Shown here piece by piece: positions 636-19,724 of a stretch of 26,648 nt of DNA. This DNA is from a virus: IMG/VR virus record IMGVR_UViG_3300043449_002136, positions 1-26,648 of that record. The stretch is one strand, 5' to 3'. The notes under the pieces are model-generated. The model made no database searches and had not been told where the DNA came from. It worked only from the letters and a program-made list of their open reading frames with translations. Position 1 is the stretch's first letter; every line of letters begins with the position of its first letter. Both the position numbers and the translations under genes were made by a program.

Positions 636-1103
636 ATGAACTGGAAATATAACCAACAAGATTTAATTGATGTCCCTAAAGATATGGAAGGGTTTGTTTA
701 CATTATTATAAATTTAACTAATAAGAAAAAGTATATTGGAAAGAAAAACTTTTGGGAAAGAAGGAAAGATCCAAAAACAGGAAGAAGAAAAAAGAAAGAA
801 AGTAACTGGAAGAAATATTTTGGATCTTGTCAAGAACTAAAAGATGATGTAAAAAAACTCGGTGAAGATAAATTTCACCGAGAGATTTTATATCTTTGTC
901 CTCATAAAAAATCAATGTCTTATTATGAAACTTACGAACAATTTAAAAGACAAGTAATTTTATCTGATGAGTATTACAATTATAACTTAGAAGGTAAGTT
1001 CTTCAAAAGTGAAAGAGAAAACATTTATAACATAGTGCAGATCAATGATGCATTTTTACTTCTTGAAGATAGTCCAATACCTCACCCAAATATTTTTGGA
1101 TGA
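636..1103 (+). CDS. Free-standing GIY-YIG endonuclease (Seg-like)
   Basis: 155 residues. The GIY-YIG core is clear: GFVYIIINLTNKKKYIG at residues 19-35, a lysine/arginine-rich stretch (41-55), SNWKKYFGS at 56-64, then FHREIL with Arg82 and YYETYEQF with a likely catalytic Glu98. Short proteins with this order are widespread in T4-like cyanophages and resemble the Seg homing nucleases of T4, which cut phage DNA and spread by repair. It is the only convincing plus-strand gene in the window and has its own late promoter and terminator, so it is an autonomous unit set between minus-strand genes. Its last 62 bases overlap a minus-strand 52-aa gene. Homing activity is inferred. Confidence 0.85.
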   Translation: MNWKYNQQDLIDVPKDMEGFVYIIINLTNKKKYIGKKNFWERRKDPKTGRRKKKESNWKKYFGSCQELKDDVKKLGEDKFHREILYLCPHKKSMSYYETYEQFKRQVILSDEYYNYNLEGKFFKSERENIYNIVQINDAFLLLEDSPIPHPNIFG

Positions 1104-3272: not shown

Positions 3273-4427
3273 TTATAGTTTGAACCCAGAAAAAGCATCT
3301 GGTTTCATGTCTTGATTAATTCCACCAACAACATAACCTGTAAGATTTTCTTCTTGGGGGGGAACTTGTTCATTTTTTGAATTGAGCCATTTACTCATCC
3401 AAGGCAATGGGTCAGCAGATAGGGGAATATCATAGGCAGGTTTGAGGCCGATAGCCTTCATTCTTCGGTTGGCATTCCATTCAATATAATTATAAAGAAG
3501 TTTTTCATTAAGTCCAATCATAGAACCATCTTTAAACAAATACTGAGCCCAGGCTTTCTCTTCATTTACAGCCCTATCAAACATAGCATAAGACCAATCC
3601 TCTTCCTCTTGCGCGATCTTCGCCATATCAGGATCGTCACCCTTTTTCCATTTTGTGAGAATGTTCTGAGTAAGAACTAAGTGAAGAGCCTCATCAATTG
3701 CAATTTTTTTAATGATTTTAGCCGAGCCTTCCATCAGCTGCAATTCACCAAAGGCAAAACTACAGGCAAAACTAACATAAAAACGAATACCTTCTAAGAT
3801 ATTAACGTTCATAATTGCGCGATATAGCTTACGCTTTACTTCATACAATTCAGACTGCCCAAGTGTAACCCCCTCGTTATTGAACTTCCAAAGTTCAGAA
3901 GAACCATAATTCTGTGCTGAATTAATAAAATCATTATAAGATTCAGTTACACTTGATGCTCGCTCAAGAATTCTTTCATCTTCAATAATAGTATCAAATA
4001 CCTCAGTTGGGTCGGTATAGACATTTTTAATGATGTAGGTATAGGAATAACTATGAACCATTTCCATAAATTCCCAAGCAATAATAGCAGATTCCAATTC
4101 CGGTAAAGAGCAATATGGTAAAAATTGACCCGGCCCCCTACCCTGCACAGAATCTAACATAATCTGATACTTCAAATTAGAAGTAAAAATGTGTTTTTGC
4201 TCGGGGCGTAGCTTCATGTAATCAGCTCTGTCTCTTTGCAAAGGAAACTCTTCTGGTCTCCAAAAAGCCCCCAATTGCTCCTGCGTTAGCTTATAAAAAA
4301 CTGGATATTTATTGATATCATATCGCTGAACTCCAAGTGGAGACCCAAAGAACATAGGCTGTTTCGTGTACTCTACTTTATTTGAATTAAAAACAGTCAT
4401 TCCCTTAATCTCAGATTGTGCAACCAT
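3273..4427 (-). CDS. nrdB: Class Ia ribonucleotide reductase small subunit
   Basis: 384 residues, close to the 375 of E. coli NrdB. It carries the di-iron/tyrosyl-radical cofactor that generates the radical used by NrdA to reduce ribonucleotides. The radical-site motif E122-x-x-H125-x-x-x-Y129 (MEMVHSYSYTYII) matches E115/H118/Y122 of E. coli. FTSNLKYQIMLDSVQGR (81-97) and a second helix with AIDEALHLVL (ExxH) supply the other signatures. The C-terminal tail (DAFSGFKL) is the expected NrdA-docking peptide. The ATG overlaps the last 17 bases of the nrdA C-terminal gene, so translation is probably coupled. It is the last gene of the operon starting at 9251. No intein is present. Confidence 0.97.
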   Translation of the reverse strand: MVAQSEIKGMTVFNSNKVEYTKQPMFFGSPLGVQRYDINKYPVFYKLTQEQLGAFWRPEEFPLQRDRADYMKLRPEQKHIFTSNLKYQIMLDSVQGRGPGQFLPYCSLPELESAIIAWEFMEMVHSYSYTYIIKNVYTDPTEVFDTIIEDERILERASSVTESYNDFINSAQNYGSSELWKFNNEGVTLGQSELYEVKRKLYRAIMNVNILEGIRFYVSFACSFAFGELQLMEGSAKIIKKIAIDEALHLVLTQNILTKWKKGDDPDMAKIAQEEEDWSYAMFDRAVNEEKAWAQYLFKDGSMIGLNEKLLYNYIEWNANRRMKAIGLKPAYDIPLSADPLPWMSKWLNSKNEQVPPQEENLTGYVVGGINQDMKPDAFSGFKL

Positions 4428-4929
4428 CGCAGCTTGATTCCTCCGTCTCTTCTAATAGTTCGTTAATAAGATCGTCAACTTCTTTTCCATCTTTTGCGCC
4501 ATCGTATGTATTTAAATAATACGCAGTTTTGTGGCCCATTTTATAAGAATATAACCAATCGTTTACAATCTCAGACATAGGAACCAGCTTATCTGGATAA
4601 TGCTCTGGATTGTAGTTCCAATTCACACTAATTGCCTGATCTGTAAACTTTTGTAGAACAGATACTACATTCAAATACCCCCTATTTGACTTCATATCCC
4701 ACACTGTTGTATAGTTATTCTTTAAAGTTGCATATTGAGGAACAATTTGCTTTAGCCGACGCTTAACTGACAATAGTTCACGAGGTGGTTCAATGCCATT
4801 TGTAGCATTAGAGGTTAGTGAACTATTATGTGAGACAAGACCCTCACAGTTATAATGATGGACATCGGGAACTTCAATATCATATGTGGGTAGATTTTCT
4901 TTTGTATGAGAGATTTTAGTAACTTTCAT
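4411..4929 (-). CDS. nrdA: NrdA C-terminal half: C-intein (35 aa) plus C-extein
   Basis: 172 residues. Residues 1-35 are the C-terminal part of a split intein: TYDIEVPDVHHYN (block F) and GLVSHN (block G), with the penultimate His and terminal Asn needed for Asn cyclisation, then Ser as +1 nucleophile. Residues 36-172 (SSLTSNATNGIEPPRE..., ending SSCDGCTI) are the C-terminal part of class Ia NrdA, with the conserved SNATNGIEPPR segment and the terminal Cys pair that relays electrons to the active site. The protein alone cannot be an enzyme and must be joined to the product of 6027-8228. Its ATG lies inside the last codons of the HNH gene (14-base overlap), so it is probably coupled to that gene's translation. 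Confidence 0.93.
   Translation of the reverse strand: MKVTKISHTKENLPTYDIEVPDVHHYNCEGLVSHNSSLTSNATNGIEPPRELLSVKRRLKQIVPQYATLKNNYTTVWDMKSNRGYLNVVSVLQKFTDQAISVNWNYNPEHYPDKLVPMSEIVNDWLYSYKMGHKTAYYLNTYDGAKDGKEVDDLINELLEETEESSCDGCTI
4825..4929 (-). other. C-intein of the split NrdA intein
   Basis: 35 codons with blocks F and G, ending His-Asn before Ser+1. The length equals that of C-inteins of conventionally split inteins (about 35 residues). Confidence 0.9.
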
Positions 4930-5980
4930 TTTTAATAAACTCGTAATAATTTTTTAGTAATGTTTCCTTGGGTATGGAGCAATTTGCTCTTTTGGTGCTA
5001 TTCTCTAGTTTAGGAAGAATCTCAAGATTCACAACAGAACCAATAATTTTTGGATCTATCTCATCAACAAATCCCATTTTAATGGAATATTTGTGATCCA
5101 AATGATATTCTTTTGATCTGAGTGTTATGTTTTCTATCAACTCACCATAAAAAAATACACTTTCTCGCGTATATCTATTTACAAGAGATTTATATTTATT
5201 AAAATCATCAATGATAGAATCCTCCACCCATAGACCAAGTTCTACCATTTGGTCTCTATATTTTTTAGCATTTTTATCATAAATTTCTTTCCAAGTGTCT
5301 GGGTATTTTTCTTGAAGAAACTTTCTATTCCTCCCGTGTTGAGATTTTTTAATGGAAATAGCATCAAGAATCACCTCTGCTTGTTCTTTGGAATAACCAC
5401 GCTTTAGATAATACTCTTCAAACACACCAGCGTTAGATTTTTGATATGCACTCACCTGCTGAATTGCTTCAGTTTGGGTATTACCCCTTTTAATCCAATA
5501 CTCAACTCTTCGTTTACTTCTTTCACGAAACTCCTTTTCTTTTTGGGATTCCCAATCATTTCCATATTTTTCTTTAAACCACTCATCAGAAGATGAGTAT
5601 AAGCTCGTTTCTTGAAACTTTTGAAACATTTCTAAACCCTTTTTTTCGCCATGTCTTTGGATAAACTTTTCTTTAGATGTAGCTTTATCTGATTTAAATT
5701 GAGTTACTTTTTGTATAGCCTCTTCTTCTGTTATGTTTAGTTTCAATTTCCAATACTCAGGTAAATAAGCAACTCCTTTTTTATTTTTATTGTTTTTCAT
5801 AAAAATAAAAAAGTTGGCTATGACATTTAAATCAAATTTTTGTGGGTCTAATTCATCTAAAAGTTTCAGAAATGCTCTTGGGTCTAATGGATACAAATCA
5901 TTTAAAAACTTTATTTCTTTAGATGGCTCAGAAAGATTAAACTTTGTTCTTAGTATTTTACTGATTTTACTTCCCCGCAT
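4916..5980 (-). CDS. Homing-endonuclease-like HNH protein between the nrdA halves
   Basis: 354 residues. At the C-terminus YHLDHKYSI (His293, Asp295, His296), then VVNLEILP (Asn318) and LENSTKRANCSI (Asn327, Lys330) form an HNH nuclease motif. The rest is mostly helical and holds at least three copies of an EYW-x4-G-x4-EA-x-x-x-V repeat (about residues 75-92, 160-177, 189-206), alternating with W/F-x-x-x-YG-type segments. These are probably DNA-recognition modules. The same repeats occur in the GIY-YIG-like gene between the uvsX halves. Position between two halves of an intein-split gene, within the same transcript, matches the 'fractured gene' arrangement described in phage metagenomes. Its start codon is buried in an 18-bp inverted repeat. 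Target cleavage at intein-free nrdA is inferred. Confidence 0.85.
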   Translation of the reverse strand: MRGSKISKILRTKFNLSEPSKEIKFLNDLYPLDPRAFLKLLDELDPQKFDLNVIANFFIFMKNNKNKKGVAYLPEYWKLKLNITEEEAIQKVTQFKSDKATSKEKFIQRHGEKKGLEMFQKFQETSLYSSSDEWFKEKYGNDWESQKEKEFRERSKRRVEYWIKRGNTQTEAIQQVSAYQKSNAGVFEEYYLKRGYSKEQAEVILDAISIKKSQHGRNRKFLQEKYPDTWKEIYDKNAKKYRDQMVELGLWVEDSIIDDFNKYKSLVNRYTRESVFFYGELIENITLRSKEYHLDHKYSIKMGFVDEIDPKIIGSVVNLEILPKLENSTKRANCSIPKETLLKNYYEFIKNESY

Positions 5981-6023
5981 TTATGCCTCTTATAACTCTT
6001 ATTACTTATAAGAGGCATAAATG
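5978..6023 (-). promoter_or_regulatory. Inverted repeat sequestering the HNH gene start
   Basis: 5978-5995 and 6006-6023 are perfect 18-bp inverted repeats with a 10-base loop. In minus-strand RNA the 3' arm holds the AGAGG ribosome site, a 5-base spacer and the ATG (5978-5980). A transcript reading through from nrdA would fold this into a long stem and block initiation. The repeat starts 3 bases after the nrdA N-half stop, so it fills the whole junction. Confidence 0.85.
6003..6010 (-). promoter_or_regulatory. Late-promoter-like TATAAGTA inside the inverted repeat
   Basis: TATAAGTA differs from TATAAATA by one base and spans the 5' arm and loop. Initiation 5-7 bases downstream (about 5996-5998) would yield RNA lacking the 5' arm, freeing the ribosome site and ATG of the HNH gene. 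Confidence 0.55.
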
Positions 6024-6026
6024 TAA

Positions 6027-8228
6027 TCAGAATTCAACTATGTCATCATCAACTTCAATTTCATAAACTCGCTTCCAAATTTTACTACCGTCTGGTTGCT
6101 CTACTAAAAATCTATGGTTTGGAGTGCAATTAATAACTTTACCATTTTCAAAGGTTAACTCTACTGTTGGCTTTTTACCATTGTAGTAAAGTTTATCTAC
6201 AGGCTTGAATCCATCTTTGGTTTCAACTACAATAGGGTCACTAAGATCATACCACCCAACAAGGTCATTTTCTTCAATCTCTTGCCAATCAATACCACCC
6301 GCTTCTGCGATTTGATGGAAATCCATAAATCCGTCAGATGTTTTGATTTTATGTTTATAAAAAAGGCACGACTCACTTGGCATAAAACTCGAGAGTGTTG
6401 AATTACGTAGGCCATAAGTTAGAATATCTTGACGAAGTTCTTCCCAATCGTGACGGAGTTCAACAGAAGAAATCTCATCAACATCTTTCTTGTATGTGTC
6501 AATAGGTAGAATACCCTGAGAATACTTTGTCCTATTGAAATAGTCACAAGGTCCTTTTTCTTTTGCAAGATTCATTGATGCTTTAAGCAGATAATATTGG
6601 AAACTCTCTGCTAATTGATGAGTATGATCCCAGGCAGCTTGATCTTCATAAGATACTCCGAGTTTGGCGAAATAATGGGCCAAACCAACAAATCCAATAC
6701 CAAGTGAGCGCCTGGCTCGGGTTGATTTTTCTGCGGCAGGAACCACATAATCTTGAAAATCAATCAGCTCATCAAGACCACGAACAATAAGATCAGTTAC
6801 ATCTTCAAGTTCTTTGTCTGACTTTACGACTCCAACGTTTACGGCGCCCAATACACAGAGAGCAATTTCACCTTCTGTATCATCAAGAGTTTTAATTGGT
6901 GTTGTCGGAAGAATAACCTCCATACATAAATTTGATTGATTTACCTTATCAATAAAAGAACTATGTGAATTTGCGTGATCAATGTTAAAGATGTAAATGC
7001 GTCCTGTTTCACTGCGTTCATTTAGAAGACTAATAATCAGTTCTTGGGTATTAATTTGTTTTTTCTCTACATAAGGATCATTTTCATATTTTTCATACAT
7101 TACATCAAACTCTGGAGTTCCGAAGACATCGTAAAGTCCAGGTACATCATTAGGACAAAATAGACTAATTACTCCATTACCAATAAATCGCTCATAAAAC
7201 AGTTTTGACATTCCGATGGCATAATCAATATTACGCACACGATTTTCATCGTTACCTTTATTATTTTTAAGAACAATAACCTGTTCAATCTCTTTGTGCC
7301 AAATGGGACAAAAAACGGTCATACTGCCTTTACGCAGACCACCTTGATGCACTGATTCAAGGGCGCTTTGGAAAAACTTAAGATAAGGAACAAGACCAGT
7401 TGAAATAGTTTCTCCATTACGAATTTTAGATCCCAGAGCCCGAACACGCCCGACATCAAGGCCAATGCCTGCCCTATCGGCAACATATTTCATAATTGCC
7501 GAACCAGAAGCAGCAATACTATCTAGATCATCATCAACAGAAATCAGAGTGCAGCTCGCACCTTGTTTCTTATTAGTGCGAACTCCTGCCATAATAGGAG
7601 TAGGAATATTAATTTTATGTTTGCTACTCGCATCATAGTAGCGTTTAATATAACTCAAACGAGTCTCTTTGGGATAATTCTTAAAGAGCGTCAGAGCAAT
7701 CATCATGTACATGAACTGAGGAGTCTCGTACAGTTCTTTTGTTCTTCGGTCTTGTACCAGATACTTATCTACAACTTGACGAAGACCCGCATAAGTGAAA
7801 AGAAAGTCCCTATCGTGATCAATATAAGAATTTAGTTTATCAATCTCTTCTTTAGAGTAACTATCATACACACTGGAATCATAAACATTCTTTGCAACAC
7901 ATTGATTAATGTGCTCTTCCAGATGTGGTAGATCAATACGACCACCGTAAATCTGTTTACGAATGGCAAATAGAAGCAGACGTGCGGCAACATACTGATA
8001 ACCAGGATGCTCAAGAGAAATCAAATCTGATGCAGATTTGATTAGAATTTGTTGAATGTCATCTGTTGAGATGCCATCATAAAATTGAAGACCGCTATTC
8101 ATCTCAACCTGAGATGCAGACACTCCTGAAATGCCCGCACAAGCGGCTTCTACCATAAGATGGATCTTGTCAAGATCCAAATCTACAACATTACCGTTTC
8201 GTTTTTGAACCTTAATTTCTGTTTTCAT
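6027..8228 (-). CDS. nrdA: NrdA N-terminal half: N-extein plus N-intein (113 aa)
   Basis: Large, catalytic subunit of class Ia ribonucleotide reductase. I prefer ATG 8228 (MKTEIKVQKRNG), which overlaps the gp61 stop as ATGA; ATG 8243 would add five residues. Numbering from 8243: ATP-cone at the N-terminus, redox cysteines Cys231 and Cys463, and the active-site loop SNLCMEVILP with Asn438, Cys440 (thiyl radical) and Glu442. The extein ends GLRNSTLSSFMPSES at residue 625, in the substrate phosphate-binding loop (MPSETSS in E. coli), where the intein begins at CLFYKHKIKT. The protein then stops after IEVDDDIVEF. Extein halves sum to 757-762 residues against 761 in E. coli, so nothing is missing. 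This argues for trans-splicing, not decay. Confidence 0.95.
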   Translation of the reverse strand: MKTEIKVQKRNGNVVDLDLDKIHLMVEAACAGISGVSASQVEMNSGLQFYDGISTDDIQQILIKSASDLISLEHPGYQYVAARLLLFAIRKQIYGGRIDLPHLEEHINQCVAKNVYDSSVYDSYSKEEIDKLNSYIDHDRDFLFTYAGLRQVVDKYLVQDRRTKELYETPQFMYMMIALTLFKNYPKETRLSYIKRYYDASSKHKINIPTPIMAGVRTNKKQGASCTLISVDDDLDSIAASGSAIMKYVADRAGIGLDVGRVRALGSKIRNGETISTGLVPYLKFFQSALESVHQGGLRKGSMTVFCPIWHKEIEQVIVLKNNKGNDENRVRNIDYAIGMSKLFYERFIGNGVISLFCPNDVPGLYDVFGTPEFDVMYEKYENDPYVEKKQINTQELIISLLNERSETGRIYIFNIDHANSHSSFIDKVNQSNLCMEVILPTTPIKTLDDTEGEIALCVLGAVNVGVVKSDKELEDVTDLIVRGLDELIDFQDYVVPAAEKSTRARRSLGIGFVGLAHYFAKLGVSYEDQAAWDHTHQLAESFQYYLLKASMNLAKEKGPCDYFNRTKYSQGILPIDTYKKDVDEISSVELRHDWEELRQDILTYGLRNSTLSSFMPSESCLFYKHKIKTSDGFMDFHQIAEAGGIDWQEIEENDLVGWYDLSDPIVVETKDGFKPVDKLYYNGKKPTVELTFENGKVINCTPNHRFLVEQPDGSKIWKRVYEIEVDDDIVEF
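6030..6368 (-). other. N-intein of the split NrdA intein
   Basis: 113 codons starting with Cys1 (CLFYKHKIKTSDG, block A) and holding block B as VINCTPNHRFLV with the required T-x-x-H. No endonuclease domain is inserted. The break falls where homing domains sit in continuous inteins, the usual site for split inteins. Confidence 0.92.
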
Positions 8229-9199
8229 ACCATTCTTTTCCATTTGTTAAATTTGAGTTGAGCTGTGAGACCTTGAAAAGTATTGTTCTTAATGATGTTC
8301 ATCACATCTATGTTGTTAAGAACCATATCGTTGATGTCTTGTTTTTCTATCGGGCTACTTGGCCAGATTACAATTTGAAATCCTTGTGAGATTATTTTTT
8401 CCATTCTCTGAAGAATTTCTTTATTTCTTGGTTCGTTGTCATAAACATAGACTGGGTGAGAAATATTTAGTTGCGATAAGTTTACATCAGCTCCACACAT
8501 TCCGATAGAGTTATCAACAAATTCGGAATCAAATGGCCCCTCAAGAATGTAAACCGGAGAATCCAGTTTAACATCATCATAACCATAAACCTTTGGCGCG
8601 TGTTCCACTAACATAACTGTCATGTACTTAGCTGCCGATTTACGAATTGCTCTACCTTGAATACCAATCAATTTCTTTTTATAGTAAAGAGGTATTACAA
8701 TACGCTCTTCATCCATTGAAACATCTTCAAATACTGGAGTTAATGTATTAACAAACTTTTTAAACTCTTCGGCATAATAAAACCTGTCTGGATTTAATTT
8801 TCGTGAAATTAAATAATCCCTGATTTTTTTATTTTCGCTTGATTTCGGTAGATCTAATTTTTCTTTAAATTCTGGTGGCTTAAAATCAAACTTTGGAGTT
8901 TCAGCTGGAAAGTTTTTTCCGGTGTGCCCATTAGAAAACTTTTCCAGGCAATATTGCCTATGTAGCAAAGGATCAACTTCTTTAATGAAGTTGTTCAAAG
9001 AAGTATTTGCGCCACAGTTGTGGCACTTGTAATTTGTGTTATTTCTAATTTGATAGAAATACCCACGAGCCTTATTTTTGTTTCTCTTTGAATCACCACA
9101 TAAAATACATCTACAGTTGTAAAGATTGTTCTTGACTTTCTTAAACTTTTCAAGTTTTGGAGAAAGAAGATTGATGTATTTTTCGTCTACATAATCCAT
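8225..9199 (-). CDS. 61: DNA primase, T4 gp61 family
   Basis: 324 residues (T4 gp61 has 342). The N-terminal zinc ribbon has the pairs Cys31/Cys34 and Cys59/Cys62 (CILCG...KCHNCG). The Toprim-like catalytic part shows VYILEGPFDSEF with Glu220 and VYVYDNEPRN with Asp254/Glu256, the acidic metal-binding residues. It makes RNA primers for lagging-strand synthesis together with helicase gp41 (15864-17228). It is the first gene after the promoter at 9222-9251, with only about 15 bases of leader and no clear Shine-Dalgarno. Its stop overlaps the nrdA start (ATGA). Confidence 0.93.
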   Translation of the reverse strand: MDYVDEKYINLLSPKLEKFKKVKNNLYNCRCILCGDSKRNKNKARGYFYQIRNNTNYKCHNCGANTSLNNFIKEVDPLLHRQYCLEKFSNGHTGKNFPAETPKFDFKPPEFKEKLDLPKSSENKKIRDYLISRKLNPDRFYYAEEFKKFVNTLTPVFEDVSMDEERIVIPLYYKKKLIGIQGRAIRKSAAKYMTVMLVEHAPKVYGYDDVKLDSPVYILEGPFDSEFVDNSIGMCGADVNLSQLNISHPVYVYDNEPRNKEILQRMEKIISQGFQIVIWPSSPIEKQDINDMVLNNIDVMNIIKNNTFQGLTAQLKFNKWKRMV

Positions 9200-15863: not shown

Positions 15864-17228
15864 TTAAAATTGAAAATCATTGAATTTAGCAGTTAAACTA
15901 GAGGGTTCTTCCTCTTCTTTATAAACAAATTGTTCTTCCTGTTGAACAGATTGATCTACATCATAAAGTCTCATTTTTTCATAATCAACTCCACAAGTAA
16001 ATCGTAGCAGCTTGCCCTTTCTATTGTATCGGTTCTTGAGTTGCTTGAACAAATATTGACCCATAGATTCCAACTCTTCGGTTGAAATTACAGCCAACAT
16101 AAAATCAGCAATGTGACCAAGTTTTGCGGATTCGCTAATGGCCTCAAGTGTTGGGTCACTATTTGCCTGATTGTTTCGGTTTGCCTGAACACCAGACCAA
16201 ATGGGAACGTCATTCTCTTTTGCAAATCCTCTAAGCTCTTCTGCAATAGCACCAACATATTCATAAGAATTTGCAAATCCACGTTTAATTCTTGAAGAAG
16301 CACAAATACTTAAGTAATCAACAAAAATTACATCTGGTTTAAAATTCTTCTTGAGCTTTAATTCATTGATCAAAGACTTAAAATGAATGATAGAGGCTCC
16401 TGTAGTTGGGTATTCTTTGACAATCAACTTACCCTGTGTTTTGCGAGTAAAGTTATTAATTTTTTTATTGAAGTTATCCTTGGTTAACTTTTCAATTTCA
16501 TCAATGTTGATGTCAAGACAATTTGAATCAATTCTTTTTGCAATTTCCTCTTCTGCCATCTCCAATGAAATGTAGAGAACATTCTTACCTTGTCGTAGAT
16601 AAGAACTGGCAAGGCTTGTAAAAATTAGGGTTTTGCCCACGTTGGTTCCACCCAAAATTAAATTAAGCGTTTTATTAGATACTCCACCCTTTGTAATTCT
16701 ATTAAAATACTCAAGGTCAAAAGGTATTTTCGCCTGAATGTCGTGATAATACTCAAATCGTTCATCACTATCTTCAATGTAATCGTGACCAACGTGATTA
16801 TCAAAGGAAACAGCAAGAGCATCTTGAAGAATAGATGGAATAGAATCTCTATTCTTTTTTTCTACTTGCCCATCAGCAATCTGAATAGATTCCATCAGAG
16901 CAAGATAGATTGCTTGATCACGGCACCACTTTTCAGTGGTGTCCATTAGCCATTGATTTTCTACCGGAGAATTTTCAAAACCTTCAATAATGTTAGAAAT
17001 TTCAGAAACAGTTTCTGCATTGAGATCTGTCCTTTTTTCTATTTCAATGTATAAAGCCTCCTTAGATGGAGGATTGTTATACTCATTGATAAATTCGTGA
17101 ATTTCGGTAAAGATAGTTCTGTGTGAATACTCTTTAAAGTATTCAGATTTAAGAAAAGGTAAAACCTTTCTTACATAAGCCTCATTATAAATTAGATTCT
17201 TAAGAATTAAGAATTCAACTTTCTCCAT
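15864..17228 (-). CDS. 41: Replicative DNA helicase, T4 gp41 (DnaB-like)
   Basis: 454 residues (T4 gp41: 475). Hexameric 5'-3' helicase that works with primase gp61 on the lagging strand. Walker A is GGTNVGKT at 193-200, Walker B PDVIFVDYL with Asp304, and a RecA-type core follows (VLYISLEMAEEEIAKR; SESAKLGHIADFML). The N-terminal 150 residues are helical, as in the DnaB collar. The Walker A loop is intact, notable because gp41 is a common host of split inteins elsewhere and its neighbour uvsX carries one in exactly this loop. ATG 17228 overlaps the end of uvsX by 14 bases. Confidence 0.95.
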   Translation of the reverse strand: MEKVEFLILKNLIYNEAYVRKVLPFLKSEYFKEYSHRTIFTEIHEFINEYNNPPSKEALYIEIEKRTDLNAETVSEISNIIEGFENSPVENQWLMDTTEKWCRDQAIYLALMESIQIADGQVEKKNRDSIPSILQDALAVSFDNHVGHDYIEDSDERFEYYHDIQAKIPFDLEYFNRITKGGVSNKTLNLILGGTNVGKTLIFTSLASSYLRQGKNVLYISLEMAEEEIAKRIDSNCLDINIDEIEKLTKDNFNKKINNFTRKTQGKLIVKEYPTTGASIIHFKSLINELKLKKNFKPDVIFVDYLSICASSRIKRGFANSYEYVGAIAEELRGFAKENDVPIWSGVQANRNNQANSDPTLEAISESAKLGHIADFMLAVISTEELESMGQYLFKQLKNRYNRKGKLLRFTCGVDYEKMRLYDVDQSVQQEEQFVYKEEEEPSSLTAKFNDFQF

Positions 17229-18423
17229 AACTAAATTCTTTCCTTGCGATTTCGTCTAACTGTTGCATTACTTCTTCAGTGAAGTATTCTTGTGGGTTGG
17301 CAAGAATAGTTTTAGCATAAATTTTCTTACCGTCCATTTCATAACGTCCTGCTACATTCTTCCAGAGTCCACCCTTTTCACCAAGCTCAAGCAGTCCATA
17401 ATAACGGTCAAGACCGCGCTCATCATAGTAAAGGCGAGTCTCAACTTCCTGATTTTCTTTACTCAAACGAGACTTAAAGGTTTTAGCCTTGATAATGTTT
17501 CCGATGACTTCCGCTCCATCTTTTTCTTTTGATTTTGATAATTCAATAATTGTAGATGCAGAGTAAGCAAGTCCACTACCACCACTCTGAACCGTAGCAG
17601 CTCCATAACCAGAGACATTTGCATATACGTGGTTTGTAACAATCATTGGAATCTTTGCTTGGCCAAGTTTTAAGGTTAGCATTCTAAATGCACCTTTAAT
17701 AAGAGCAGCTTTTGTCATATCCTTAACATCCTTTTCGGCAAGAGCATCACCAATCTCTTTATTTGTAGAAAGCATACCAAGACTATCAAGAACAAAAAAA
17801 CAAGGTTTTCTCTCTTGTTCTGGCTTTTTCATATAAAGATCAACCGCCTTCAAAGCTTTAGTTCTAAACTCTTCAACAGTAACTACATTAAGAACAATTG
17901 TTCTGGAAACATCAATACCTCGGCTTTGAAGTAGTGATTTCGTAATAGCCGCTTCAGTATCAAAATAAAGACAATATCCCTCTGGATTTTGCTCTAAAAA
18001 GTTCTTAATGACGGCTAAAGCGAAGAATGTGTTGTGATGATAAATGCCAGATTTTGGATTTGAAATATACCAATGAGGATAATCAATAGAAATGTCATAA
18101 ACATTTTCAAACCCAATGGGGGTTTTTTCCACTACAGTTTTTTTACCATATGAAGAAGCAATTTCTTTAGCATCAATTGCTTTAACACTTGTCGCTGTCT
18201 CGTAATCTTGAAAGATATGATTCACTGAACACTCAAATTTGTCTCCATCATCAAAGTCTAATCGTATAACTTCATTGTTATTTTTAGTTACGACTTCATT
18301 AATTCTAGTGAATCCTGTGGGGGTTTTTACATAAAGTTCATCTGTAACCGCACACGGCTCTTCGTGATTTCCATTACCATAGAGTTTATAAAGTTGTTCA
18401 TATGTAAGCTCAAGTTCAACCAT
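17215..18423 (-). CDS. uvsX: UvsX C-terminal part: long C-intein (131 aa) plus C-extein
   Basis: 402 residues. Residues 1-131 are most of an intein: TPTGFTRINEVV, then DKFECSVNHIF (block B with Ser in place of Thr), VYDISIDYPHWYISN (block F) and SGIYHHN (block G, His-Asn end). After it comes Thr+1 and the recombinase body: TFFALAVIKNFLEQ, YCLYFDTEAAITKSLL, CFFVLDSLGMLS (Walker B), VTNHVYANVSGYGAATVQSG (L2-like, with the GG-x-G-x-x-YS element after it). UvsX is the phage RecA-like strand exchanger. The Thr that completes Walker A sits here and its Lys is in the other half, so ATP binding needs splicing. ATG follows GAGG at good spacing and overlaps the GIY-YIG gene stop. Confidence 0.92.
   Translation of the reverse strand: MVELELTYEQLYKLYGNGNHEEPCAVTDELYVKTPTGFTRINEVVTKNNNEVIRLDFDDGDKFECSVNHIFQDYETATSVKAIDAKEIASSYGKKTVVEKTPIGFENVYDISIDYPHWYISNPKSGIYHHNTFFALAVIKNFLEQNPEGYCLYFDTEAAITKSLLQSRGIDVSRTIVLNVVTVEEFRTKALKAVDLYMKKPEQERKPCFFVLDSLGMLSTNKEIGDALAEKDVKDMTKAALIKGAFRMLTLKLGQAKIPMIVTNHVYANVSGYGAATVQSGGSGLAYSASTIIELSKSKEKDGAEVIGNIIKAKTFKSRLSKENQEVETRLYYDERGLDRYYGLLELGEKGGLWKNVAGRYEMDGKKIYAKTILANPQEYFTEEVMQQLDEIARKEFSYGES
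18031..18423 (-). other. C-intein (131 aa) of the atypically split UvsX intein
   Basis: 131 codons containing blocks B, F and G. In conventional split inteins block B is in the N part; here it is in the C part. This is the arrangement of the atypical AceL-TerL-type inteins. Confidence 0.88.
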
Positions 18424-19408
18424 TTAGTTTTTCCTCATTTATGTTAGTGATGTTATATTTTTTTAAAAGTGATATAGCTTCAGTTAGATTGCTATCAGTA
18501 TAAAGAAAACATTCAGTAGTTTTTATTATAGTAGGAGAATATGTTTTCTTAAACATTTTATGGAACTCATTTTCCAAATCAATTGCCTCATAAGCATTCA
18601 TTTGTTTAAAAAGGATAATATTATATTTTAAAGAAACTTTCCATCTTTTAGTGATGTTATCTTGTTTCGTAAGTCCATATTTTACAATTTGATTATTCTT
18701 ATCATTTAGAGTTATTAGATAAAAATTTAGTTTATCCTGCTCTTTAACTGTTTTTTTGGTGTAATACCCAACATGTGCGTTTAGCCTTCGTTTTTCATTA
18801 ACAAAATCTAAATCTTTTCCACTTTCGTAAAAAGTTTCATACCACTTTTGATTTTTTTCTTTCCATCTTTTTGTTCCCTCTTCTTCACCATATTTTGAAA
18901 TATAAAATTCAAGGCTCCGAGACTGTTTTTGAGAAATTATGATTTTTGCTTCCTCTTCTGTATAACCTTGTCTAATCCAATATTCTGGTCTTCGTATTGA
19001 GGAATTGATGAATGTATCTGGATCATTTTCTAATCTGACTTTAACAGATTTTTTTCCATTTTGTATTTTATTTTCTTTGAATGTTTCATATTTTTTTCTA
19101 CCAATGTCTTCACCATATTTTTCTATCCAATGTTCAACATTTTGGAGTTTTTTCATAGAAACACTCAAATTTTGTTTTTGCTCTTCAGTTGCTATTCTAC
19201 CTTTTAGACGTTCTCCGTTATTTTGAATCCTCCTAACTTCTTCTTTTGCCTGTTCAAGTGTGAAGCCCCTGTTTAGCCAATATTCAACACACCTCACACT
19301 ACTTTTTCTACATTCAGCTTTCGCTTTAACCTTTGCCTCTTCAGAAGAAAATCCTTGAAGTTCCCAATAAATAGGCATCCTAGGATTATTAGTATGATTT
19401 CTTGTCAT
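18416..19408 (-). CDS. GIY-YIG-like homing endonuclease candidate between the uvsX halves
   Basis: 330 residues from ATG 19408 (a TTG nine bases upstream is possible). Repeats of the EYW-x-x-x-G-[FY]-[ST]-x-E-x-A type occur near residues 13-33, 42-62 and 142-162, interspersed with YGEE-x-G-x-x-[RK]W segments. The same repeats build the HNH gene between the nrdA halves. The C-terminal 100 residues (NFYLITLNDKNNQIVKYGLT, TKRWK, then LENEFHKMF and TTECFLY) look like a divergent GIY-YIG/T5orf172-type nuclease, with a YGLTK replacing YIG, an Arg near 255 and a Glu near 279-281. The catalytic assignment is by eye and moderate. A late-promoter-like octamer lies 22 bases upstream. Stop overlaps the uvsX C-part start. 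Confidence 0.75.
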   Translation of the reverse strand: MTRNHTNNPRMPIYWELQGFSSEEAKVKAKAECRKSSVRCVEYWLNRGFTLEQAKEEVRRIQNNGERLKGRIATEEQKQNLSVSMKKLQNVEHWIEKYGEDIGRKKYETFKENKIQNGKKSVKVRLENDPDTFINSSIRRPEYWIRQGYTEEEAKIIISQKQSRSLEFYISKYGEEEGTKRWKEKNQKWYETFYESGKDLDFVNEKRRLNAHVGYYTKKTVKEQDKLNFYLITLNDKNNQIVKYGLTKQDNITKRWKVSLKYNIILFKQMNAYEAIDLENEFHKMFKKTYSPTIIKTTECFLYTDSNLTEAISLLKKYNITNINEEKLNG

Positions 19409-19429
19409 AATATACAAATGTAGGCGATT

Positions 19430-19437
19430 CTATTTAG
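19430..19437 (-). promoter_or_regulatory. Late-promoter-like CTAAATAG for the uvsX-embedded nuclease gene
   Basis: CTAAATAG on the minus strand, 22 bases before ATG 19408 and 21 bases after the uvsX N-part stop. It has the same spacing as other late promoters in the window. Confidence 0.5.
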
Positions 19438-19457
19438 TGGGAAACTCCCTTCAAAAA

Positions 19458-19724
19458 TTAAAGCATTTCTTTTATTTTGTTTGCCGTCTCCTCGTCGCAA
19501 TACAATACAATCTTTTCAGTTCCACGAGCACATTTTCCCGTGCTACTGGCCCCAGCTATAGAAGTGATCTTATTTCCAGAAATACCACCAAAAATGCTAC
19601 CTGAAACCAGCGCATTAAAAATGTATGAACCCGTATCAACATAAGTTTCAGTCTCATCAATATCAGATGCTAATGAGGTATAATCCCCACCAATTTCTTT
19701 TACAATGTCTTTTAAAAAATCCAT
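19458..19724 (-). CDS. uvsX: UvsX N-terminal part: 64-aa N-extein plus 24-aa N-intein
   Basis: 88 residues. Residues 1-64 match the start of T4-like UvsX and end in the P-loop ITSIAGASSTGK, i.e. Walker A up to its Lys. Residues 65-88 (CARGTEKIVLYCDEETANKI, then KEML and stop) are a very short N-intein beginning with Cys1. The spliced product would have 335 residues, like UvsX of cyanomyoviruses (T4: 391). An AAGGAG ribosome site five bases upstream overlaps the gp43 stop. On its own the polypeptide has no function I can propose. Confidence 0.9.
   Translation of the reverse strand: MDFLKDIVKEIGGDYTSLASDIDETETYVDTGSYIFNALVSGSIFGGISGNKITSIAGASSTGKCARGTEKIVLYCDEETANKIKEML
19461..19532 (-). other. 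N-intein (24 aa) of the atypically split UvsX intein
   Basis: Only 24 codons, starting Cys-Ala-Arg-Gly. The other half of the intein starts at 18423. Length is comparable to the 25-residue N part of the AceL-TerL intein. Confidence 0.88.

What the first reader, a model, noticed from the sequence alone, without database searches (positions are those of the whole stretch)
17215..19724. uvsX is split inside Walker A by an atypical intein: 24-aa N part, 131-aa C part
Seen: the P-loop GASSTGK ends at 19533, a 24-residue Cys-led piece follows and stops. The other gene starts with a 131-residue intein fragment holding blocks B, F and G before Thr, which completes the P-loop. Known: most natural split inteins break late (about 100/35). 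Early-split ones such as AceL-TerL and the VidaL examples are few and prized because the N piece is so short. By eye, the break is upstream of the LYKLYG helix that in AceL-TerL lies in the N part, so the site may be distinct even within that group.
Basis: partly seen in the sequence, partly recalled or inferred. Interest (0 to 1): 0.9.

Follow-up and report, generated by a model that had tools for sequence, protein, structure and literature searches.

The report
Early-split UvsX intein, VidaL type
A phage's DNA-recombination gene (uvsX) is cut in two inside its ATP-binding loop, and the two proteins are very probably stitched together by an early-split intein of the same type as the already characterised VidaL intein, so this is a real and useful new member of a known kind rather than a new break site.

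Summary
On the minus strand uvsX is split between K and T of Walker A: the N gene ends GASSTGK plus a 24-aa Cys-led IntN; the C gene starts with a 131-aa IntC ending HHN, then T. An ORF of about 330 aa lies between. Eleven other distinct viral contigs share this split and four carry the same intein unsplit. Both halves are under purifying selection. An unsplit relative (63% identical to the joined halves) is predicted as a HINT domain at pLDDT 96.9; the window's break falls right after an extra helix that follows strand beta-2. The break lies before the helix that AceL-TerL keeps in its N piece (S2), but it is the S1 site known from VidaL and PolB16 OarG. The solved VidaL intein also turned up here, identical, inside a phage uvsX P-loop: same gene, same break, insertion point 3 residues away, ORF between the halves. 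Differences: insertion point, a helical tail that lengthens IntN from 16 to 24 aa, and a probable GIY-YIG-type endonuclease. Side findings: split and unsplit forms within one family, and uvsX in three pieces. Splicing itself is inferred, not shown.

The parts
19533..19724 (-). N-extein: first 64 residues of UvsX, ending in GASSTGK of Walker A
   Evidence: PHROG 97 hit, E 7.8e-16
19461..19532 (-). IntN, 24 aa: Cys1, block A, beta-2 and a helical tail; TAA stop at 19458-19460
   Evidence: 11 split relatives share C1, K7, I8, Y11, L24 and Ile/Leu20; helix 14-24 in the L004 model
18416..19408 (-). ORF between the intein halves, 330 aa from its ATG (a TTG start is at 19417): putative homing endonuclease with YWxxxG repeats and a GIY-YIG-like C-terminal domain
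   Evidence: the endonuclease assignment is below cut-off
18031..18423 (-). IntC, 131 aa: beta-3 and first core helix, blocks B (ECSVNH), F (VYDISIDYPHWY), G (GIYHHN)
   Evidence: HINT fold of the unsplit relative
17215..18030 (-). C-extein: UvsX from the Walker A Thr (+1 nucleophile) to the end
   Evidence: PHROG 97 E 2.3e-71, Pfam RecA E 6.3e-11

Best explanation
A naturally split class 1 intein with an S1 (VidaL-type) break, inserted between Lys and Thr of the Walker A loop of a T4-like phage UvsX recombinase, in the 'fractured gene' layout with a putative homing endonuclease gene between the halves. Shown: the gene layout, intact catalytic residues, recurrence in other phages, purifying selection on both halves, and a confident HINT fold for an unsplit relative. 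Inferred: IntN docks into IntC; Cys1 forms a thioester, Thr+1 attacks it, the terminal Asn cyclises, and GASSTGK is joined to TFFALAV. Only the joined protein has a complete P-loop, so loss of splicing would cost the phage its recombinase, which protects the element. Also inferred: the middle ORF cuts empty uvsX P-loops and so spreads the cassette.
For: Layout and residues; same split in eleven other distinct contigs, unsplit in four; median dN/dS 0.14 (both exteins and IntC) and 0.27 (IntN) with synonymous sites near saturation; the halves stay intact where the middle ORF is lost (L003), reduced to a remnant (L094) or broken (L009); AlphaFold2 pLDDT 96.9, pTM 0.90 and Foldseek matches to inteins including VidaL; VidaL shares gene, break and layout.
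Against: No splicing assay. The two window halves could not be co-folded; the model is of an unsplit relative. Pfam's intein model does not detect either half. The endonuclease class of the middle ORF rests on sub-threshold hits.
Confidence: 0.93

Rival explanations
1. A new early-split position, distinct from every known one.
For: IntN is 24 aa against 16 in VidaL and 15 in PolB16 OarG, and ends with a helix they do not seem to have.
Against: IntC begins at the homologous residue in VidaL (MIEEKKVTVQELRELY against MVELELTYEQLYKLYG); the added residues lengthen the loop on the N side and do not move the break past a core element.
Confidence: 0.06
2. A decayed element: the halves no longer splice and uvsX is inactive, or the halves work unjoined.
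For: Other phages carry split, functional genes without protein joining, for example nrdA of Aeh1 (PMC2988022).
Against: All splicing residues are conserved across 11 split and four unsplit members, with purifying selection on IntN and IntC; the break is inside the P-loop itself.
Confidence: 0.05
3. Assembly or sequencing artefact.
For: Unsplit versions of the intein exist (L004, L097, L107, L108).
Against: A whole conserved ORF lies between the halves, with the same 8-nt overlap with IntC in most relatives from independent samples.
Confidence: 0.01

Closest known systems
VidaL intein (PDB 6vgv/6vgw; IntN 16 aa)
   Same: uvsX P-loop, S1 break, IntC of like length, ORF between the halves in L117
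   Different: 24% identical over the joined sequence; inserted 3 residues upstream (GESG|..|SGKS); +1 Ser; no helical tail on IntN; its ORF looks Vsr-like by eye
PolB16 OarG split intein (IntN 15 aa)
   Same: S1 break by the literature (PMC10189870, PMC13014065)
   Different: Ser1/Ser+1, DNA polymerase host gene
AceL-TerL and GOS-TerL split inteins, Cat consensus (PDB 6dsl)
   Same: Early split with a short IntN (25-37 aa)
   Different: S2 break after the first core helix; that helix is in IntN
Fractured genes (Dassa et al. 2009; paper not held, recalled)
   Same: Split intein with a free-standing endonuclease gene between the halves
   Different: The endonuclease family described there is, from memory, Vsr-like; the ORF here looks GIY-YIG-like
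gp41 helicase intein of cultured Vibrio phage vB_VmeM-32 (KU160494)
   Same: 27-aa IntN with a similar tail, S1-type break, ORF between the halves, P-loop insertion; not recognised as split gp41 in its annotation
   Different: Different gene; 28% identical to the L004 intein

Membership tests
Inteins (class 1, HINT fold) | Cys/Ser/Thr at 1, block B T/SxxH, block F, terminal HN, Cys/Ser/Thr at +1 | tested here: met
   Cys1, SVNH, VYDISIDYPHWY, HHN, Thr+1
Inteins (class 1, HINT fold) | HINT fold | tested here: met
   Unsplit relative L004: pLDDT 96.9, pTM 0.90; Foldseek hits are inteins. Window pair itself not modelled.
Inteins (class 1, HINT fold) | Protein splicing activity | not testable with these tools
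   Needs an assay
S1-split inteins (VidaL, PolB16 OarG) | Break between beta-2 and the strand/helix that starts the core, short IntN | tested here: met
   IntC start aligns with VidaL IntC start; position on the L004 model
S2-split inteins (AceL-TerL, GOS-TerL) | First core helix inside IntN | tested here: not met
   The LTYEQLYKLYG helix is in IntC
Fractured genes | Split intein with a free-standing gene between the halves | tested here: met
   ORF 18416-19408 between IntN and IntC
Fractured genes | Intervening gene is a homing endonuclease of the Vsr-like family (recalled) | tested here: inconclusive
   No Pfam or PHROG family above cut-off; weak GIY-YIG-clan hits instead
GIY-YIG endonucleases | Match to a family model above cut-off | tested here: inconclusive
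   MUG113 hits in 3 of 9 records, E 4e-6 to 2e-5 for one record, all below cut-off; window copy not hit. Invariant NFY, KYGLT, KRW, LEN, TECF. AlphaFold model poor, Foldseek empty.

The most novel reading that the evidence does not exclude
The helical tail of IntN is a docking element that marks a distinct subclass of S1-split inteins in phage P-loop ATPases (UvsX, gp41, RFC clamp loader, ClpB-like) able to switch between split and unsplit forms. All 11 split UvsX members with a readable IntN keep the tail (Ile/Leu20, Leu24), while unsplit L097 has lost it and unsplit L107/L108 have another segment there.
Probability: 0.25. Interest if true: 0.6.

Novelty: new member of a known kind. Interest (0 to 1): 0.42.

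Why it matters
Few early-split inteins are characterised, and they are valued because the short N piece can be made by chemical synthesis. This scan adds a family of about a dozen Cys1/Thr+1 relatives with natural unsplit versions as controls, so how a short N piece docks becomes directly testable. It also places VidaL's own gene in a phage uvsX P-loop. Pfam's intein model misses both window halves, so such genes are likely under-annotated.

Tried and rejected
Pfam and PHROGs on the middle ORF: nothing above cut-off. AlphaFold model of the middle ORF: pTM 0.38, Foldseek gave nothing meaningful. Direction of the split/unsplit change: trees unresolved, one clade of unsplit forms not rejected (AU p 0.205 protein, 0.068 DNA), so neither splitting nor re-fusion is claimed. 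Cellular genomes: three weak archaeal intein hits, no family members. Literature: no held paper pairs UvsX with a split intein; Dassa 2009 and the GOS-TerL paper are not held. From memory only and unverified: Neugebauer 2017 may already name a 'VidaL UvsX-2' intein.

Full report
Observation. The window's minus strand carries uvsX in two genes. The first (19724-19458) ends in the Walker A stretch GASSTGK followed by a 24-residue piece that starts with Cys. The second (18423-17215) opens with 131 residues ending HHN and goes on with Thr and the rest of UvsX. Between the halves lies a 330-aa ORF whose stop overlaps the IntC start codon by 8 nt; the same overlap is seen in L001, L009, L081, L093, L095, L096 and L101.

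Relatives. Searches of viral contigs found the same split in L001, L002, L003, L009, L081 (C half only; the contig begins inside the middle ORF), L093, L094, L095, L096 (near-copy L099), L101 and L105. The same intein is unsplit in L004 (near-copy L092), L097 (near-copy L098), L107 and L108. It is patchy: of the 80 best uvsX relatives only five carry it. The middle ORF is missing in L003, reduced to a remnant in L094 and broken into three frames in L009, yet both intein halves stay intact there. Pairwise comparison shows synonymous sites near saturation with conserved protein: median dN/dS 0.14 for both exteins and IntC, 0.27 for the 24-codon IntN. This argues that both halves are used.

Fold. 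The unsplit L004 intein, modelled with the split halves in its alignment, gives pLDDT 96.9 and pTM 0.90. Its order is strand 7-11, helix 14-24, strand 33-37, helix 38-45, then the rest of the fold. The window's IntN of 24 residues ends at the end of that extra helix. Foldseek against PDB returns inteins, with VidaL 6vgv at target TM 0.76. The window pair itself could not be co-folded with the tools at hand.

Where the break is. Two natural early breaks are named in the literature held: S1, right after beta-2 (VidaL, PolB16 OarG), and S2, after the first helix (AceL-TerL, GOS-TerL) (PMC13014065; PMC10189870). Our IntC begins MVELELTYEQLYKLYG, VidaL's MIEEKKVTVQELRELY. The family profile meets VidaL from position 23 but CatC (S2 group) only from 47, and CatN carries the helix residues EDLYQRLA at its end. 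So the break is S1. The longer IntN reflects an added helix, not a shifted break.

VidaL's own gene. A search with VidaL IntC found it at 98-100% identity in four viral contigs. In L117 the IntN CLPKEAVVQIRLTKKG follows ...VFAGESG, and the IntC ends GIVSHN before SGKSYFCAG; the full pair matches PDB 6vgv, and both exteins hit PHROG 97 UvsX-like recombinase. A solved S1 intein is thus also a uvsX P-loop intein, three residues upstream of ours, with a 373-aa ORF between its halves (absent in L119). This lowers the novelty of the finding.

Middle ORF. It holds YWxxxG(Y/F) repeats that also occur in the ORFs lying inside the nrdA split intein of this window, VidaL, the Vibrio phage gp41 intein, and ClpB-like and clamp-loader split inteins. 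Its C-terminal region has invariant NFY, KYGLT, KRW, LEN and TECF residues, and three homologues hit the MUG113 model, which I recall as a GIY-YIG-clan family, below cut-off. GIY-YIG is the likeliest class but is not established. T4 SegA, a GIY-YIG enzyme, cuts uvsX (PMC2988022), so such a target is plausible.

Wider family. Early-split inteins with IntN of 27-30 aa, inserted in P-loops, appear in gp41 of cultured Vibrio phage vB_VmeM-32 and in metagenomic clamp-loader and ClpB-like genes. A scan of cellular genomes gave no members.

Verdict. A real, very probably functional S1-split intein and a new allelic family within a known kind. Splicing, docking by the helix and homing by the ORF are inferences.

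Noticed in passing
window 4411-8243 (-): nrdA is split by a canonical (late-break) intein: N gene 6027-8243, C gene 4411-4929, with a 354-aa HNH-like ORF (4916-5980) between. One contig thus holds an early-split and a late-split intein in two genes.
   Followed up: partly
L009 5001-7250; L094 1848-4648: uvsX in three pieces: the early-split P-loop intein plus a second, late-split intein further on, at different sites in the two contigs. The middle protein carries an IntC at its start and an IntN at its end, which implies natural tandem trans-splicing. L110 shows the same for its middle and last pieces.
   Followed up: partly
window ORFs 18416-19408 and 4916-5980; L086, L109, L112, L117: ORFs inside unrelated split inteins share YWxxxGY repeats joined to what look like different nuclease domains (GIY-YIG-like, HNH-like, Vsr-like by eye), as if one DNA-binding module had been paired with several nucleases.
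   Followed up: partly
L090 (KU160494.1, Vibrio phage vB_VmeM-32): This cultured phage has gp41 split by an early-break intein and uvsX split by another intein with a SegG-like ORF between; the record's annotation leaves the gp41 pieces unnamed.
   Followed up: partly
L114 / L115: A helicase gene with a P-loop intein whose N and C frames overlap out of frame near the same early position; a true split or a frameshift was not decided.
   Followed up: no
L129 2186-3355: Clamp-loader gene with an early-split P-loop intein and no ORF between the halves, followed by what looks like a second intein at the DEC (Walker B) site.
   Followed up: no
window 636-1103 (+): A free-standing SegE-type GIY-YIG endonuclease gene (Pfam PF19835, E 4.6e-36).
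   Followed up: no
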